Source: a virus. From it: a stretch of DNA of 20,195 bases. The notes below the pieces were generated by a model. It ran no database searches. It was given only the letters and a program-made list of their open reading frames with translations, and was not told where the DNA came from. This document shows positions 1,341-14,553 of the stretch, piece after piece; within the stretch, counting starts at the first letter, position 1; every line of letters starts with the position of its first letter. Position numbers and translations under genes: made by a program. Location of the stretch: positions 1-20,195 of IMG/VR virus record IMGVR_UViG_3300048024_000007. One strand, written 5' to 3'.

Positions 1341-2087
1341 ATGGGTGATACACAAACTATTGAAATGGAAGGTAGTATTACAGGTGCAGATGCCCCTAGT
1401 GATACAGAACCAAAACAGGAGCAAGAACGCCCTGAATGGTTGCCTGAGAAATTTAAAAATCCTGAAGATATGGCTAACGCCTATAGTGAATTAGAAAAAC
1501 AATTTACACAACAACGACAAAATGACAAGACTGAAGAACAAAACGAGAACACAGAGTTATCTATTGATGATGCACAGGAAGCTGTAGAAAATGTAGGCTT
1601 AGATTTTGCTGCTATGACAGAGGATTATGTTACTAATGGTCAATTATCGGAAGACAATTATAAACTATTAGATGAAAAAGGTATTCCTAAAGAAGTAGTA
1701 GACGCTTATATTGAAGGGCAAAAAGCTGTGTCTGAAAATATGAAACAAAATGTATTTAGTTCTGTAGGTGGTGAAGAAAATTATAAACAAATAACAGATT
1801 GGGCATCTAATAATATGTCTGAATCTGAAAAAACAGCTTACAACAATTCAGTTAATTCAGGTGATTTAGAACAAGCTAAATTAGCTATAGATGCTTTAGC
1901 TGCACGTTATAAATTACAAACTGGTACTACCCCTAATCTAGTAGGTGGTAAAGCATCAGAAAGCATGGACACATATACATCATGGGCTGAAGTGACAAGT
2001 GACATGAAAGACCCTAAATATGCTAAAGACCCTGCTTACCGAGCAAAAGTTGAAGGAAAACTTGGGCGAAGTAAATCAATCACTTAG
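1341..2087 (+). CDS. Capsid assembly scaffolding protein (T7 gp9-like)
   Basis: A 248-residue acidic, Gln/Glu-rich protein without cysteines. In the T7 family the scaffold guides capsid subunits into the prohead shell and leaves on maturation. The recognisable part is the N-terminal motif around residues 33-54 (WLPEKFKNPEDMANAYSELE), which is shared by T7-like scaffolds, followed by a long charged, helix-forming region. The C-terminal end is basic (KLGRSKSIT), as expected for a scaffold tail that contacts the capsid protein. It lies between the portal and capsid genes, as in T7. The start codon at 1341 follows the previous stop by two bases; the only purine-rich stretch upstream (AGGGGG at 1324-1329) is rather far away, so translation may be coupled to the upstream small gene. 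Confidence 0.9.
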   Translation: MGDTQTIEMEGSITGADAPSDTEPKQEQERPEWLPEKFKNPEDMANAYSELEKQFTQQRQNDKTEEQNENTELSIDDAQEAVENVGLDFAAMTEDYVTNGQLSEDNYKLLDEKGIPKEVVDAYIEGQKAVSENMKQNVFSSVGGEENYKQITDWASNNMSESEKTAYNNSVNSGDLEQAKLAIDALAARYKLQTGTTPNLVGGKASESMDTYTSWAEVTSDMKDPKYAKDPAYRAKVEGKLGRSKSIT

Positions 2088-2088
2088 T

Positions 2089-2104
2089 CATACTATCTAG
2101 TATG
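2089..2104 (+). other. Short near-perfect inverted repeat after the scaffold gene
   Basis: CATACTA at 2089-2095 is the exact reverse complement of TAGTATG at 2098-2104, separated by two bases. It begins one base after the scaffold stop. No T-run follows, so it does not look like an intrinsic terminator. It could be an RNA processing or 3'-end-protecting hairpin, or a protein-binding site. The function is unknown. Confidence 0.45.
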
Positions 2105-2132
2105 CTAAATAGTTCAGACAAGACAGACCAAA

Positions 2133-2155
2133 ACTAGACCCTTATATAAGGACAC
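2133..2155 (+). promoter_or_regulatory. Candidate phage RNA polymerase promoter for the capsid gene
   Basis: The segment includes ACCCTTATATAAGGACA (2138-2154). Aligned to the T3 promoter consensus with the start site at G2150, it matches ACCCT, the A two bases later, and the AA-GG around the start: 10 of 14 positions from -12 to +2. It contains a perfect 12-base palindrome, CCTTATATAAGG (2140-2151). It sits in the only large intergenic gap and would give an 84-base leader, similar in layout to T7 phi10 before gene 10. A second copy was not found in the window, so the assignment rests on resemblance and position only. Confidence 0.45.
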
Positions 2156-2207
2156 TCTTGCAAAATGAGGTTGGCGAGTTAAGAACGAAAACTAAACTTA
2201 AACTTAA

Positions 2208-2224
2208 CTAACTTTAAAAAGGAG
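2208..2224 (+). promoter_or_regulatory. T7 gene 10-like translational enhancer and Shine-Dalgarno
   Basis: Bases 2209-2224, TAACTTTAAAAAGGAG, match the T7 gene 10 leader (TAACTTTAAGAAGGAG) at 15 of 16 positions. The match covers most of the published 'epsilon' enhancer element TTAACTTTA (CTAACTTTA here) and the Shine-Dalgarno AAGGAG, with a 9-base spacer to the capsid ATG at 2234. This fits the need for very high capsid expression. Enhancer activity is inferred from the T7 element. Confidence 0.65.
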
Positions 2225-2233
2225 TCATTTATT

Positions 2234-3187
2234 ATGGCTAACGCAAACCCATCTGATTTAGGTCAGATAAATAATACAGGAACAGCAGATGTTTTGTTCC
2301 TAAAACAATTTAGTGGGGAAGTCCTCGCTAGTTTTGAGCAGTCTACTGTAGCTATGGATAAGCATATGGTACGTACTATTGCTTCAGGTAAGTCAGCACA
2401 ATTCCCTGTCATGGGACGAAGTTCTGCTGCCTATCATACCCCAGGAGCAGAGATTAATGGTACTGATATTAATCATGCTGAAAAAGTAATTACTATTAAC
2501 GACTTGCTACTTAGTTCGCATTTCATTGCAAATATTCAGGAAGCTAAAAATCACTATGATGTAAGGTCAGTTTACTCTGCCGAAATGGGACGTGCACTCG
2601 CTTTCCAAATGGATAAGCATATCCTTCAAACTATGGTTCAAGCTGCAGCAGCTTCTGCAAACGTAGGCGATACAGGCTACGCTGCAGGTACAGTTATTAC
2701 TTCTGCAAACGCAGGTACAGTATCTGCTGACTTGATTGCTGCTATCTATGATGCTGCTGAAGCACTAGATGATGCTTATGTTCCTGCTGATGGACGTTTC
2801 TGTTACCTTAAACCTGCACAGTATTACTTACTTGCTAACGCATCTAATGCTGTAAATGTAGATTTTAGTGGTAGAGGTTCTATTGCTGATGGTACAGTTC
2901 CACAGATTGCAGGTGTAAACCTAATCAAAACACCACATCTACCAACTGCTAACGTAACAGGCACAGGGGTTGATGCAGGTGGAGCAGGGGGAGCACAAGT
3001 TGCTGCTGCTGCAAATACTCTAGCGATTGTGTCTCACACTTCTGCTGTGGGTACAGTAAAACTAATGGATTTAGCTGTTGAAAGCGAATACGATATTCGT
3101 AGGCAAGGTACATTGATGGTTGCAAAATATGCAGCAGGTCATGGCGTACTAAGACCCGAAGCAGCAGTACAAATTCAATCTGCATAA
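2234..3187 (+). CDS. Major capsid protein (T7 gp10-like)
   Basis: A 317-residue shell protein of the T7 gp10 family (T7 10A is 344 residues, HK97-type fold). The family signature is clear at the C-terminus: SAVGTVKLMDLAVE from about residue 271 and KYAAGHGVLRPEAA from about 298. The N-terminal region contains ASGKSAQFPVMGRSSAAYHT, also typical. A Gly/Ala-rich stretch at about residues 245-260 corresponds to a flexible loop that is also present in T7. The start at 2234 has a strong Shine-Dalgarno in a T7-like leader, and the gene is followed within 10 bases by an intrinsic terminator. Unlike T7, I see no obvious extended frame downstream for a frameshifted minor form, because the terminator follows at once. 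This is likely the most highly expressed gene here. Confidence 0.96.
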   Translation: MANANPSDLGQINNTGTADVLFLKQFSGEVLASFEQSTVAMDKHMVRTIASGKSAQFPVMGRSSAAYHTPGAEINGTDINHAEKVITINDLLLSSHFIANIQEAKNHYDVRSVYSAEMGRALAFQMDKHILQTMVQAAAASANVGDTGYAAGTVITSANAGTVSADLIAAIYDAAEALDDAYVPADGRFCYLKPAQYYLLANASNAVNVDFSGRGSIADGTVPQIAGVNLIKTPHLPTANVTGTGVDAGGAGGAQVAAAANTLAIVSHTSAVGTVKLMDLAVESEYDIRRQGTLMVAKYAAGHGVLRPEAAVQIQSA

Positions 3188-3196
3188 TATCAACAT

Positions 3197-3231
3197 AGCG
3201 AGAGTCCTTAATTGGGCTTTCGCTTTTTTTT
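3197..3231 (+). terminator. Intrinsic terminator after the capsid gene
   Basis: AGCGAGAGTCC (3197-3207) pairs with GGGCTTTCGCT (3214-3224) as an 11-bp stem including two G.U pairs, with a 6-base loop TTAATT. An unbroken T-run follows to 3231. It lies 10 bases after the capsid stop, the position of Tphi in T7. As in T7 it is likely leaky, because the tail genes downstream still need expression. Confidence 0.88.
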
Positions 3232-3244
3232 ACAGGAAAACAAA

Positions 3245-3853
3245 ATGGCAAATCCAAATCCGACTACAGAAATAGAAGCTGTCAATATTATGTTAGCTTC
3301 CATTGGGGAAGCACCTGTATCTAGTATTAGTAATACTGCACTTGTTGATGTATCTATTGCAAAATCAATCTTGGATGAAACAAATGTTTCAGTTCAATCC
3401 ACAGGAATATACTCTAACACAGAATTTAATTACCCAATAGAAGCAACTGTAGATGGTGAATTACTAATACCTGCTAACTGTGTAAGAATAGACACAGTAG
3501 GTAATAGTGCAACTGTTGATGTTGTTCAGCGTGGTTCACGCCTTTATGACAGAGAAAAGTTTTCATTTACTAAATTTGTTGGTACGTATTATGTAGAAAT
3601 GGTTTTACTTTTACCTTTTAATGAGTTACCTCAACACGCAAAAAGATACATTGTAGTAAAAGCTGCAAGGCGTTTTCAAGCCCGTTATATGGGTTCAGAA
3701 GCGTTAGGTGGTTTTACAAAAGATGATGAGCAGGAAGCTATGAGTTACTTTACGCAATGTGAAGCTGCACTTGAGGATAACAATATTTATCACGACTCAT
3801 ATGATATGTATAAAATAGTACACAGAGGTGCTCCTAGACGAGCAATAAGGTGA
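3245..3853 (+). CDS. Tail tubular protein A (gatekeeper, T7 gp11-like)
   Basis: A 202-residue protein (T7 gp11 is 196) forming the ring under the portal that links the connector to the tail nozzle. The N-terminus MANPNPTTEIEAVNIMLASI followed by GEAPV is characteristic of the family. The C-terminal region (PFNELPQHAKRYIVVKAARR, then FQARYMG) also fits. I chose the ATG at 3245, with AGGA at 3234-3237. A longer frame from a TTG at 3212 would start inside the terminator stem and has no support. The gene is followed after four bases by tail tubular protein B, and its stop overlaps the Shine-Dalgarno of that gene. Confidence 0.94.
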   Translation: MANPNPTTEIEAVNIMLASIGEAPVSSISNTALVDVSIAKSILDETNVSVQSTGIYSNTEFNYPIEATVDGELLIPANCVRIDTVGNSATVDVVQRGSRLYDREKFSFTKFVGTYYVEMVLLLPFNELPQHAKRYIVVKAARRFQARYMGSEALGGFTKDDEQEAMSYFTQCEAALEDNNIYHDSYDMYKIVHRGAPRRAIR

Positions 3854-3857
3854 TAGT

Positions 3858-5900
3858 ATGCCATTAGTAAGTACAGCTATCCCTAATCTATTAAATGGTA
3901 TTAGCCAACAACCTCAAACATTAAGACAAATAACTCAAGGCGAAGAACAAATCAACGCCACATCTTCTGTTATTGATGGTCTAGTACGCAGACCACCAAC
4001 AGAACATATAGCAAAAATTATTAGTTCTGCTGTAAGTGGAGCAAGTGTCCACATTGTAAATCGTGATGCAGATGACCAATATATTGTTGTTATATCTGCT
4101 ACTACAAGTTCAGCTACTATACAAATATTTAGTTTAGATGGTACTGTTACAACGTGTACTACTCCTGATGGAGTTGATTATTTATTTTGTGCTAATCCTG
4201 CACAGGACTTAGAATTTTTAACTGTTGCCGATTATACCTTTGTTGTAAATAAAACAAAAACTGTCGGAATGGAAGTAGCAGTTACGAATGGTAATGTAAC
4301 ATCTAAGCATCAAGAATTTACAGACTTACCTACAACTGCGACTGTAAATGACATTTATGAAATAATTGGAGATAATACTAACCAATTTGATAATTACTAT
4401 GTTAAAGCATTAAGTGCAAATACTTATGAAGAAACAGTAAAACCTAATATTAAATATCAATTAGATGCTACTACAATGCCACACTCATTGGTATTAACTT
4501 CAGGTTCATTTGCATTTAGAAAAAATACTTGGGGAGAAAGAACTGTAGGTGATGAAGATTCAGCACCAAATCCTTCTTTTGTAGGAAGAACAGTTAGTAA
4601 TATTTTCTTTTACAAAAATAGATTAGGGCTGCTATCAGACGAATATGTTTTGTTTAGTCAGTCAGCTAATTTCTTTAATTTCTTTCCTACGTCAGTTACT
4701 GCTGTTTTAGATGATGCACCTATTGATGTATCAGTTAGTCATACTAAAGTTTCACTTCTAAAACACGCTATACCTTTTAACGAGTCACTCACCTTGTTTT
4801 CAGATAGTACACAATTTACTATTGAGACAGGTGGAATATTAACACCAAAGACAATATCTATTGTCCCAAGTACAGAGTTTGAAAATGATACAACTGTTGC
4901 ACCTGTGGGGGCAGGTAATTACCTCTACTTTACGACTAAGCGTGGAGACTTTACGTCAGTACGTGAATATTATGTGGAAAGCGATACAGTCATTGTGGAT
5001 GCGAGTGAAGTCACTTCTCACGTACCTAAGTACATTCCGAAAAATGTAGTAAAATTAGCATCATCATCTAATGAAGATGTTTTGTTTGTATTGTCTGCAA
5101 CTGATAGAAGTAAATTATATTCTTATCGTTGGTTTTGGCAGGGAACTACTAAAATGGTTTCTAGTTGGTCAGAATGGCAATTAGATAGTGGAGATTCTAT
5201 CTTAGATATGACTATCTTAGAAAACGAATTGTTCTTTGTTATTAGTCGGGCAGATGGGGTACATATAGAAAAAGTTAAATTACAATATCCAATAGATACA
5301 GGATTAGATTTCTGTGTAAGAGTAGATAGAAAAGTTAGCTTAACAGGAACATATGACGCTCCAACAGACACTACTACTTGGACACTACCTTATGCGTATT
5401 CAGGAGCAATGAAAGCTATTAAGAGTGGTTCATGGTCTTCACGTAAAGGTACAGATATAACTATAACCCGTCCTACAACAACTACTGTTGCTGCTGTCGG
5501 AAACTATAGTTCTGCTCCAGTAATTTTAGGAGTACCTTACACAACTTCTTATAAATTCTCTACTCAATTTGTTAGAGAAAATCAAGGGAAACAATCTGTA
5601 CAATCAGGAAGATTACAACTAAGAACTATGCGTTTGAATTATGAGAACACAGGTTTCTTTAAAGTTCTTGTAACCCCTGAAGGTAGACCTACAGGTTCAT
5701 ATGATATGACAGGTCAAATACTAAACTCAACAAGCACAACAGTTGAAGATATAAATATTATATCAGGAACATTTAGGTTTCCTATCCAATCTAAAAATGA
5801 CAGGGTAACTATACAGATACAATCAGACAGTCATTTACCATGTAATTTTCAATCAGCAGAGTGGGAAGGTTATTACACCATTCGTTCTCAAAGGATTTAA
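3858..5900 (+). CDS. Tail tubular protein B (nozzle, T7 gp12-like)
   Basis: A 680-residue protein of the T7 gp12 family (T7 is 794), the hexameric nozzle that forms the distal part of the short tail and the DNA exit channel. The N-terminal signature is visible at about residues 8-46: IPNLLNGISQQPQTLRQITQ, then the SSVIDGLVRRPP segment. The motif VSNIFFYKNRLGLLSDEYVL near residue 246 is also typical. The rest is beta-rich, as expected of a propeller-like nozzle body. The Shine-Dalgarno AAGGTG (3847-3852) overlaps the end of tail tubular A, so the two are probably translationally coupled. The stop is one base before the next start. Confidence 0.94.
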   Translation: MPLVSTAIPNLLNGISQQPQTLRQITQGEEQINATSSVIDGLVRRPPTEHIAKIISSAVSGASVHIVNRDADDQYIVVISATTSSATIQIFSLDGTVTTCTTPDGVDYLFCANPAQDLEFLTVADYTFVVNKTKTVGMEVAVTNGNVTSKHQEFTDLPTTATVNDIYEIIGDNTNQFDNYYVKALSANTYEETVKPNIKYQLDATTMPHSLVLTSGSFAFRKNTWGERTVGDEDSAPNPSFVGRTVSNIFFYKNRLGLLSDEYVLFSQSANFFNFFPTSVTAVLDDAPIDVSVSHTKVSLLKHAIPFNESLTLFSDSTQFTIETGGILTPKTISIVPSTEFENDTTVAPVGAGNYLYFTTKRGDFTSVREYYVESDTVIVDASEVTSHVPKYIPKNVVKLASSSNEDVLFVLSATDRSKLYSYRWFWQGTTKMVSSWSEWQLDSGDSILDMTILENELFFVISRADGVHIEKVKLQYPIDTGLDFCVRVDRKVSLTGTYDAPTDTTTWTLPYAYSGAMKAIKSGSWSSRKGTDITITRPTTTTVAAVGNYSSAPVILGVPYTTSYKFSTQFVRENQGKQSVQSGRLQLRTMRLNYENTGFFKVLVTPEGRPTGSYDMTGQILNSTSTTVEDINIISGTFRFPIQSKNDRVTIQIQSDSHLPCNFQSAEWEGYYTIRSQRI

Positions 5901-13368: not shown

Positions 13369-14553
13369 ATGGCATACGCACTAACTAAATACACAGGAAA
13401 CGGGAATACTGTGACCTACACTATTGGGTTTGACTATCGTCAAGCTGCTGATGTTAAGGTAAAAATTAATGGTGTTGACAAAGTAGCAGATACAACATCT
13501 CAAACAAATGATTATTCGTTTCCCTCGTCTAATCAAATAACTTTTACAACAGCACCTGCTGACCAATCAGCTATTACTATTAGGCGTTCTACAAGTCAAG
13601 ACGCAAGACTTGTTGATTATGTTGCAGGGGCAGTTTTAAAAGAAGCTGACTTAGACGCTGACTCTACTCAAGCGTTCTTTATGGCACAGGAATCTATTGA
13701 TTACGCTCAAGACTCTATTGCTGCTTCAGATGTAACGGGAGCATTTGATGCAGGAAACAAAAAGGTTGGAAATGTTGCAGACCCAACACTAGCACAAGAT
13801 GCTGTAACAAAGAATTATCTCGAAAATACTTGGTTAAGTTCAGCAGATAAAACGAGTATTAATACGTTAGCTGCAAATAATAGTGCAATAACTACTCTTA
13901 ATACTAATATGAGTGCTATTACTTCAGTAAATTCAAATGAAACAAATATTAATACACTTGTATCTAATATAGGTTCAGTTAGTGATTTTGCTAATAGGTA
14001 TCGTATTGCAACAACAGACCCATCAGCGTCATTAGACGAAGGTGATTTAGTATATAACAGCACAGACAACCAACTTAAATTTTATAATGGAACAAGTTGG
14101 AACGCTGTAGCGACAGGTGCTGACGTTAAGGCAGGGGTGTCTGCGAATGATACATCCCCAGGATTTCTTAATGGCAAACTTGTTGCAGGTTCAAACATTA
14201 CGTTTGTAGAAAACAATGATGGTGGAAATGAGACACTAACTATAAATGGTACTGCTGCTCTATTTAGTGCAGAAAGGTTGGCAACAACTTCAGAAGCACA
14301 GGCAGGAACAGATAACACTACAGGTATGACACCTTTACGTGTTAAAGAAGCTATAACTCATAATGCAGGTACAGTAAATAATGCTGCATTTTATGGTTTT
14401 AAACAGACTAATGGGGTACTGCAGGTTGATGGAACAACAGGTGGTGGTTCAGAAGCATACACACTTTCTGACTATAAAGATTCAGAATTTGCATCTTTGG
14501 GATTGACGTTTGCTATTAATAGTAATGGTCATCTATTAGTAACAACACCCTAG
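13369..14553 (+). CDS. Tail fibre protein with T7-type tail attachment domain
   Basis: A 394-residue protein. The first 110 or so residues (YALTKYTGNGNTVTYTIGFD, then ITFTTAPADQSAITIRRST and the LDADSTQAFFMAQESIDYA region) match the N-terminal domain of T7 gp17, which binds the tail at the portal/nozzle junction. A conserved segment with KKVGNVADPTLAQDAVTKNY follows, then an Asn/Thr/Ser-rich heptad-like region (about 155-205) suited to a trimeric shaft. Next comes a small domain with LVYNSTDNQLKFYNGTSWNA (about 227-246), and a motif near 304-329 (LATTSEAQAGTDNTTGMTPL) that recurs in many phage fibres. It is shorter than T7 gp17 (553) and lacks a recognisable C-terminal tip, so it probably acts as an adaptor for the next gene product. 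Confidence 0.9.
   Translation: MAYALTKYTGNGNTVTYTIGFDYRQAADVKVKINGVDKVADTTSQTNDYSFPSSNQITFTTAPADQSAITIRRSTSQDARLVDYVAGAVLKEADLDADSTQAFFMAQESIDYAQDSIAASDVTGAFDAGNKKVGNVADPTLAQDAVTKNYLENTWLSSADKTSINTLAANNSAITTLNTNMSAITSVNSNETNINTLVSNIGSVSDFANRYRIATTDPSASLDEGDLVYNSTDNQLKFYNGTSWNAVATGADVKAGVSANDTSPGFLNGKLVAGSNITFVENNDGGNETLTINGTAALFSAERLATTSEAQAGTDNTTGMTPLRVKEAITHNAGTVNNAAFYGFKQTNGVLQVDGTTGGGSEAYTLSDYKDSEFASLGLTFAINSNGHLLVTTP

What the first reader, a model, noticed from the sequence alone, without database searches (positions are those of the whole stretch)
2133..2155. T3/T7-like promoter upstream of the capsid gene
ACCCTTATATAAGGACA (2138-2154) matches the T3 phage promoter at 10 of 14 positions from -12 to +2 when G2150 is +1, and lies in the only large gap, where T7 has phi10. 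The palindrome CCTTATATAAGG is contained in it. It predicts that this phage carries its own single-subunit RNA polymerase, encoded outside the window, and gives a seed for finding its other promoters.
Basis: partly seen in the sequence, partly recalled or inferred. Interest (0 to 1): 0.6.

Follow-up and report, generated by a model that had tools for sequence, protein, structure and literature searches.

The report
Capsid-leader RNA hairpin, not a promoter
The "promoter-like" palindrome in front of this marine phage's capsid gene is really one copy of a small folded RNA that many T7-like phages carry at the start of the capsid gene's message, where T7 itself has its strongest promoter, so it probably controls how much capsid is made after transcription.

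Summary
The sequence and the 10-of-14 T3 match are as described, but the match is no better than chance: 10 such sites in the window, 12.75 expected. A 37-kb contig of the same phage species (95.7% identical over the whole window) carries the T7-type RNA polymerase gene and three strong promoters, TAATACCC(A/C)CTCA(T/C)T(A/T)AG. They lie after the polymerase gene, before the portal module and after the terminase. The palindrome is instead the apical stem of a compact RNA element, window 2134-2160: a short outer helix, an asymmetric C x AYAM internal loop, a 3-5 bp stem and a YNMG tetraloop (UGCG in most relatives, AUAU here). It occurs about 50-105 nt upstream of the capsid gene in phages of Pelagibacter, Prochlorococcus, Synechococcus, Roseobacter, Rhizobium and Bordetella, more weakly in one of Pseudomonas, and in prophages. 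All seven pairs covary. A covariance model finds at most one significant copy per genome, always at the capsid gene; T7, gh-1, a Berlinvirus and PHB01 have none. No Rfam 15 match; no description found in the open literature. The RNA element is close to certain; its role (post-transcriptional control of capsid expression) is inferred.

The parts
2134..2160 (+). capsid-leader RNA element (whole): outer helix C2134-G2160, U2135.U2159 mismatch, A2136-U2158, G2137-C2157, A2138-U2156; internal loop C2139 x A2152-C2155; apical hairpin 2140-2151
   Evidence: covariance-model hit at 2133-2161, 25.9 bits, E 3e-4 (the window copy is one of the 50 rows of the model); comparative structure over 61 distinct relatives
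   Evidence: identical in the contigs G001/L036, L035 and PANC01000024
2152..2155 (+). conserved AYAM strand (ACAC) of the internal loop, facing C2139
   Evidence: A(C/U/A)A(A/C) in 61 of 61 strict-rule elements (the selection rule itself asked for this pattern)
2084..2108 (+). second, upstream hairpin (UUAG-[U]-CAUACU-AUCU-AGUAUG-CUAA) overlapping the scaffold stop codon; also varies in a compensated way among close relatives
2219..2224 (+). ribosome-binding site AAGGAG of the capsid gene, preceded by UAACUUUAA as in the T7 gene 10 leader
   Evidence: sequence compared with T7
2234..3187 (+). major capsid protein (T7 gp10A-like, 317 aa)
   Evidence: Pfam PF21703 E 1.2e-79; PHROG 267 E 3.5e-88
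1341..2087 (+). scaffold (capsid assembly) protein, T7 gp9-like
   Evidence: Pfam PF05396 E 3.1e-17; PHROG 1052

Best explanation
The palindrome is the apical stem of a conserved structured RNA element in the 5' leader of the capsid mRNA. SHOWN by comparison: the element exists, pairs on the mRNA-sense strand, lies about 50-105 nt upstream of the capsid start codon across many autographivirids outside Studiervirinae, occurs at most once per genome at significant score in the genomes searched, and is not a phage promoter. INFERRED: capsid transcription starts at the phage promoter in front of the portal module (about 3.1 kb upstream of the capsid gene), the long message reads through portal and scaffold, and the element acts in cis on that RNA to set capsid output separately from the upstream genes. 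It would do so either as the folded 5' cap of a processed, stable capsid mRNA or as the binding site of a phage-encoded protein such as capsid or scaffold itself. It would thus do post-transcriptionally what T7 does with promoter phi10 plus its RNase III site. Choosing between stabiliser and protein-binding site is not possible from sequence; I favour the processed-mRNA stabiliser slightly.
For: (1) A pattern fixing only flanks and loop (TTGAC-N4-TGCG-N4-ACAATCTTG) gave 40 distinct contexts in viral contigs. The two N4 strings are fully complementary in 40 of 40 (37 Watson-Crick, 3 with one G-U), although pairing was not asked for. (2) In 50 distinct rows: 95.7% of cells paired vs 69.0% shuffled; 99 cells changed on both sides vs 24.6; covariation score 0.838 vs 0.290, 0 of 500 shuffles; sliding the structure drops pairing to 33-53%. 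Outer pairs, not used in selection: pair 1 is 61/61 (42 A-U, 19 G-C), pair 2 52/61, pair 5 55/61, each 0 of 2000 shuffles. (3) The covariance model hits 20 of 31 capsid relatives from bacterial genome contigs not used to build it (one of them, L295, is the window's own species with an identical leader); every hit is on the + strand, ending 51-105 nt before the ATG. One significant site per genome over 0.52 Mb, always at the capsid gene. (4) Promoters of the same species and of HTVC031P, 142P and 109P score 25-30 bits; the capsid gap peaks at 2-6. (5) Departures from Watson-Crick in the unbiased set are G-U, not A-C, fitting the mRNA strand. (6) Other phages have RNA-processing features in the same gap: tRNA in LUZ100, RHEph01 and Syn5, RNase III site in gh-1. 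In LUZ100 a mapped RNA 3' end (T14, 20829) lies at the 5' edge of that tRNA.
Against: No transcript or protein data for this phage. The window's own copy has loop AUAU, not YNMG, and its apical hairpin is weak on its own (-2.5 kcal/mol). RNAalifold recovers only the apical stem, not the short outer helix. The apical pairs in alignment A2 were selected for pairing. 11 of 31 relatives in genome contigs gave no hit; LUZ100 scores only 14.8 bits because of an enlarged arm. Relatedness of the sequences inflates shuffle statistics. Stabiliser, protein-binding site and processing site are not told apart.
Confidence: 0.75

Rival explanations
1. T3/T7-type promoter of the phage's own RNA polymerase with +1 at G2150.
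For: 10/14 match to T3; position equivalent to T7 phi10; the polymerase exists in the same species.
Against: Chance-level match. The species' own promoters are a different, far stronger motif, and the site ranks 2397 of 40356 at -6.5 bits. Spacing and sequence are not kept in the nearest relatives, while base pairing is.
Confidence: 0.03
2. A second, unrelated promoter class read as a hairpin (as N4 virion polymerase reads hairpins, or as KP34 polymerase reads two unrelated promoters).
For: KP34 polymerase recognises two unrelated promoter classes (PMC6834552). The element is conserved at a place where T7 has a promoter.
Against: Stem sequence changes freely with only pairing kept; YNMG loops and G-U pairs point to RNA. 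The Syn5 promoter ATTGGGCACCCGTAA (PMC3950665) does not resemble the Syn5 copy of the element. At most one significant copy per genome.
Confidence: 0.05
3. Transcription terminator or pause site for the phage polymerase that ends upstream messages before the capsid gene.
For: A stem-loop between scaffold and capsid; the 3' flank AATCTKG resembles the T7 class II signal ATCTGTT (from memory), which is exact in L092.
Against: No U-run follows the stem; exact ATCTGTT in 1 of 61 elements. If it terminated, the capsid gene would have no promoter in the same species.
Confidence: 0.08
4. Operator palindrome for a DNA-binding regulator (for example the MarR-like protein of integrase-carrying relatives).
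For: Perfect 12-bp palindrome in the window.
Against: In relatives the arms differ from phage to phage and only their complementarity and the non-palindromic loop, C and AYAM are kept; a protein reading dsDNA would keep arm sequence.
Confidence: 0.02
5. An RNA element whose main job is translational autoregulation by capsid or scaffold protein, rather than mRNA stability (a sub-case of the best explanation, so its probability overlaps with it).
For: Constant unpaired residues (C, AYAM, tetraloop) on a sequence-free stem are typical of protein-binding hairpins; conserved across unrelated hosts, so a phage-encoded partner is plausible.
Against: It lies about 60 nt from the ribosome-binding site, so repression would have to be indirect; no binding data.
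Confidence: 0.3

Closest known systems
T7 phi10 promoter plus gene 10 leader (5' stem-loop, UUAACUUUAA, ribosome-binding site)
   Same: Place in the genome (between scaffold and capsid genes), stem-loop upstream, and near-identical UAACUUUAA...AAGGAG before the start codon.
   Different: No promoter here; the stem-loop has another sequence and architecture; the T7, gh-1, Berlinvirus and PHB01 loci give no hit to the model.
gh-1 R10 RNase III site upstream of gene 10
   Same: A stem-loop in the leader of the capsid gene, annotated as a putative RNA-processing site.
   Different: gh-1 has a promoter beside it and no copy of this element.
LUZ100 capsid leader (PMC10134795)
   Same: Related capsid; C x ACAA loop recognisable but with an enlarged apical arm; phage promoter phi7 lies about 560 nt upstream of the capsid gene, not at the element.
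   Different: A tRNA-Asn and extra sequence lie between promoter and element; weak model score (14.8 bits, E 1.1).
Mu-gpT motifs (candidate structured RNAs upstream of Mu-type capsid genes, from memory)
   Same: Candidate cis RNA motifs associated with phage capsid genes.
   Different: Other phage group; no Rfam 15 family matched the window or 15 relatives apart from a tRNA and chance-level hits.
KP34 dual-promoter polymerase (PMC6834552)
   Same: Shows that a T7-type enzyme can use two unrelated promoters.
   Different: Those are dsDNA sequence motifs, not covarying hairpins.

Membership tests
T3/T7-type phage promoter | match to the phage's own promoter consensus | tested here: not met
   -6.5 bits at 2133-2150 against 27.7-29.6 for the three own-species sites
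T3/T7-type phage promoter | recurs at other phi positions of the genome | tested here: not met
   no second site within 3 mismatches in the window; motif search finds a different motif at phi positions
T3/T7-type phage promoter | cognate single-subunit RNA polymerase in the phage | tested here: met
   PANC01000024 2935-5409, PF00940 E 8e-110, T7 RNAP E 5e-147
T3/T7-type phage promoter | transcript 5' end at +1 | not testable with these tools
   needs 5'-end mapping
cis-acting structured RNA | compensated base changes supporting one structure | tested here: met
cis-acting structured RNA | fixed position relative to one gene across diverse phages | tested here: met
cis-acting structured RNA | effect on expression | not testable with these tools
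   needs reporter or phage mutants
intrinsic terminator / T7 class I terminator | GC-rich hairpin followed by a U-run | tested here: not met
   followed by ACACUCUUGC here, ACAAUCUUGA in relatives
T7 class II pause/termination signal | ATCTGTT | tested here: not met
   1 of 61 elements (L092)
described Rfam family | score above the family's gathering threshold | tested here: not met
   only a tRNA in RHEph01 passes
YNMG (UNCG-type) tetraloop hairpin | YNMG loop | tested here: inconclusive
   60 of 61 distinct strict-rule relatives yes; the window copy has AUAU
RNase III processing site | long dsRNA stem and mapped cleavage | not testable with these tools
   the stem is only 4 + about 3 bp, too short for a classical site; no 5'/3' end data

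The most novel reading that the evidence does not exclude
A previously undescribed RNA family, one per genome, controls capsid output post-transcriptionally across most autographivirids outside Studiervirinae by binding a phage protein (capsid or scaffold), replacing the phi10 promoter logic of T7.
Probability: 0.3. Interest if true: 0.8.

Novelty: new variant of a known kind. Interest (0 to 1): 0.62.

Why it matters
The T7 picture is that capsid is made in excess because its gene has its own strong promoter. These phages, of an abundant marine group, show no such promoter but keep a small covarying RNA at that spot, from Prochlorococcus to Rhizobium phages. It gives a directly testable post-transcriptional step in T7-like gene expression, a covariance model for finding it, and the likely promoter consensus of this phage group.

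Tried and rejected
T3-like promoter at 2138-2154 (chance match, not conserved). Alternative promoter register with +1 at G2160 on ACACTCTTG, from likeness to HTVC019P TTACACTATTAG: dropped when per-genome motif discovery gave other promoters and the ACAxTCTTG strand proved to be part of the RNA fold. Rfam search of the window and 15 relatives: nothing relevant. Exact 17-mer scan of viral contigs: only the same phage plus two chance hits in unrelated sequence. Motif discovery in HTVC019P was misled by repeats at the genome ends, and in G006, G009, G010 and G011 it returned no promoter-like motif. Paper searches for a described capsid-leader RNA or pelagiphage promoter found none in the open library.

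Full report
WHAT WAS CHECKED. The 17-mer and the 10/14 T3 match are as stated. In the window there are ten sites with at least 10/14 to T3 -12..+2 on both strands; dinucleotide shuffles give 12.75 on average, and a leader-sized stretch has such a match about one time in ten. The T3 likeness is therefore not evidence.

WHAT THE WINDOW IS. It is a fragment (an IMG/VR virus record) of a T7-like podovirus related to HTVC019P-type pelagiphages. The gene order is portal (cut), scaffold, capsid, tail tubular proteins, internal virion proteins, tail fibre, terminase (the internal virion and fibre genes by position only). Its capsid is 61% identical to HTVC142P. A nearly identical contig (G001, 25 kb) and a 37-kb contig in a probably misbinned MAG (PANC01000024.1; whole window aligned at 95.7%) extend it.

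POLYMERASE AND REAL PROMOTERS. PANC01000024 encodes an 824-aa single-subunit RNA polymerase at 2935-5409 (PF00940 E 8e-110; best solved relative T7 RNA polymerase, E 5e-147). De novo motif search in its non-coding DNA gives three near-identical sites: TAATACCCCCTCACTTAG at 5411 (after the polymerase gene, before the next ORF, which has the position of the single-stranded-DNA-binding protein gene), TAATACCCACTCATTAAG at 14129 (before the portal module; 897 nt left of the window) and TAATACCCCCTCATTAAG at 35548 (after terminase; 324 nt right of the window). They score 27.7-29.6 bits, nothing else on the + strand reaches 12, and the scaffold-capsid gap peaks at 2.2. HTVC031P, 142P and 109P have their own motif TAAAGTACCC..T..TAGA at equivalent places (RNA polymerase, SSB, pre-portal, tail fibre, end), again not at capsid. 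These are promoter predictions; none has been tested. In the T7 alignment the residues facing N748 and Q758 of the T7 specificity loop are E and K (numbering from memory). An acidic residue there fits the C's at -10/-11, as in T3 (from memory).

THE ELEMENT. Extended, the fold is C-UU-GA-C-[3-5 bp]-YNMG-[3-5 bp]-AYAM-UC-UU-G: three conserved outer pairs around a U.U/U.U mismatch, then a C x AYAM internal loop, then the apical hairpin. Outer pair 1 is 61/61 (A-U 42, G-C 19), pair 2 52/61, pair 5 55/61; none of 2000 shuffles reaches these. On a 50-row alignment all seven pairs carry changes on both sides, 95.7% of cells pair and the covariation score is 0.838 against 0.290 shuffled. P-SCSP2 and L017 extend the outer helix to five pairs (AAGUG/CACUU, CAAAA/UUUUG). 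In the window: C2134-G2160, U2135.U2159, A2136-U2158, G2137-C2157, A2138-U2156, C2139 x ACAC 2152-2155, CCUU/AAGG 2140-2151 with loop AUAU. The AUAU loop is real for this lineage (window, G001, L035, PANC all identical) but is the only non-YNMG loop among the 61 strict-rule elements.

UNBIASED AND INDEPENDENT TESTS. The 40 distinct contexts are 40/40 complementary (37 Watson-Crick, 3 with one G-U), and 38 lie right before a capsid ORF. One more was cut short, and the last (L180) lies about 130 nt before a capsid relative of 31% identity. A covariance model built from A2 finds at most one significant copy per genome in 0.52 Mb, all at the capsid gene. T7, gh-1, ErnstBeyeler and PHB01 have none; Syn5 and P-SCSP1p do, although those two copies, like most of the others in that search, were also in the alignment. 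In 31 capsid relatives from bacterial genome contigs, not used for the model, 20 have a hit (19 with E below 0.05), all + strand, ending 51-105 nt before the capsid ATG, over G+C contents of 41-72%; one of these (L295) is the window's own species. The element is thus tied to the capsid gene and not to one host or base composition.

WHY RNA AND NOT DNA. Only complementarity is kept in the stems, not sequence. The constant residues are unpaired ones. Loops are of the YNMG class, which is exceptionally stable in RNA (established knowledge). Exceptions to Watson-Crick pairing in the unbiased set are G-U on the mRNA-sense strand.

HOW IT MAY WORK (inference). With no promoter found between scaffold and capsid, capsid RNA should come from the pre-portal promoter about 3.1 kb upstream. 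The same gap holds RNA-processing features in other phages: a tRNA in LUZ100, RHEph01 and Syn5 and a promoter plus putative RNase III stem-loop in gh-1. In LUZ100 the mapped RNA 3' end T14 falls at the 5' edge of the tRNA, as RNase P cutting would give (TTS position deduced from the annotated interval, whose convention was checked on T16). Pelagiphages have a second covarying hairpin there. I therefore propose a cis RNA module that separates capsid expression from portal and scaffold after transcription, by stabilising a processed capsid mRNA (slightly favoured) or by binding capsid or scaffold protein. Nothing here tells these apart.

LIMITS. Shuffle statistics are inflated by relatedness. 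The rows of A2 were chosen with a paired apical stem. The outer helix is short and RNAalifold does not call it. Autographivirids were sampled, not surveyed, so 'most outside Studiervirinae' and the exclusion with a capsid promoter are suggestions. The literature search covered open-access papers only, so an earlier description elsewhere cannot be excluded.

Noticed in passing
window 2084-2108: A second hairpin overlapping the scaffold stop codon (UUAG-[bulged U]-CAUACU-AUCU-AGUAUG-CUAA) covaries in close relatives (CAGCCU/AGGCUG, CUUCCU/AGGAAG, CAUCCU/AGGAUG, with UAG/CUA or UAA/UUA outer pairs and a bulged pyrimidine).
   Followed up: partly
897 nt left and 324 nt right of the window (G001 3442 and 24857; PANC01000024 14129 and 35548): The phage's likely real T7-like promoters TAATACCC(A/C)CTCATTAAG; a third, TAATACCCCCTCACTTAG, follows the polymerase gene at PANC01000024 5411.
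   Followed up: yes
window 2208-2224: UAACUUUAAAAAGGAG before the capsid start closely matches the T7 gene 10 leader UUUAACUUUAAGAAGGAG (translation-enhancer region).
   Followed up: no
window 3195-3233: Terminator-like hairpin AGCGAGAG...CUUUCGCU followed by a run of T right after the capsid gene, roughly where T7 has Tphi; similar sequences follow capsid in G001, G005 and G006.
   Followed up: no
L037 20829-20906 (LUZ100): A transcript 3' end labelled terminator T14 coincides with the 5' edge of tRNA-Asn in the capsid leader, which looks like RNase P processing rather than termination.
   Followed up: partly
L161, L293, L037 upstream of capsid: tRNA genes or tRNA-like sequences lie directly upstream of the capsid-leader element in Rhizobium, Synechococcus and Pseudomonas phages, and the Berlinvirus ErnstBeyeler (L292) has a tRNA-like sequence after its capsid promoter.
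   Followed up: no
L295 / PANC01000024.1: A complete or nearly complete phage contig of the window's species is binned in a Lentimicrobiaceae MAG, most likely a misbin.
   Followed up: no
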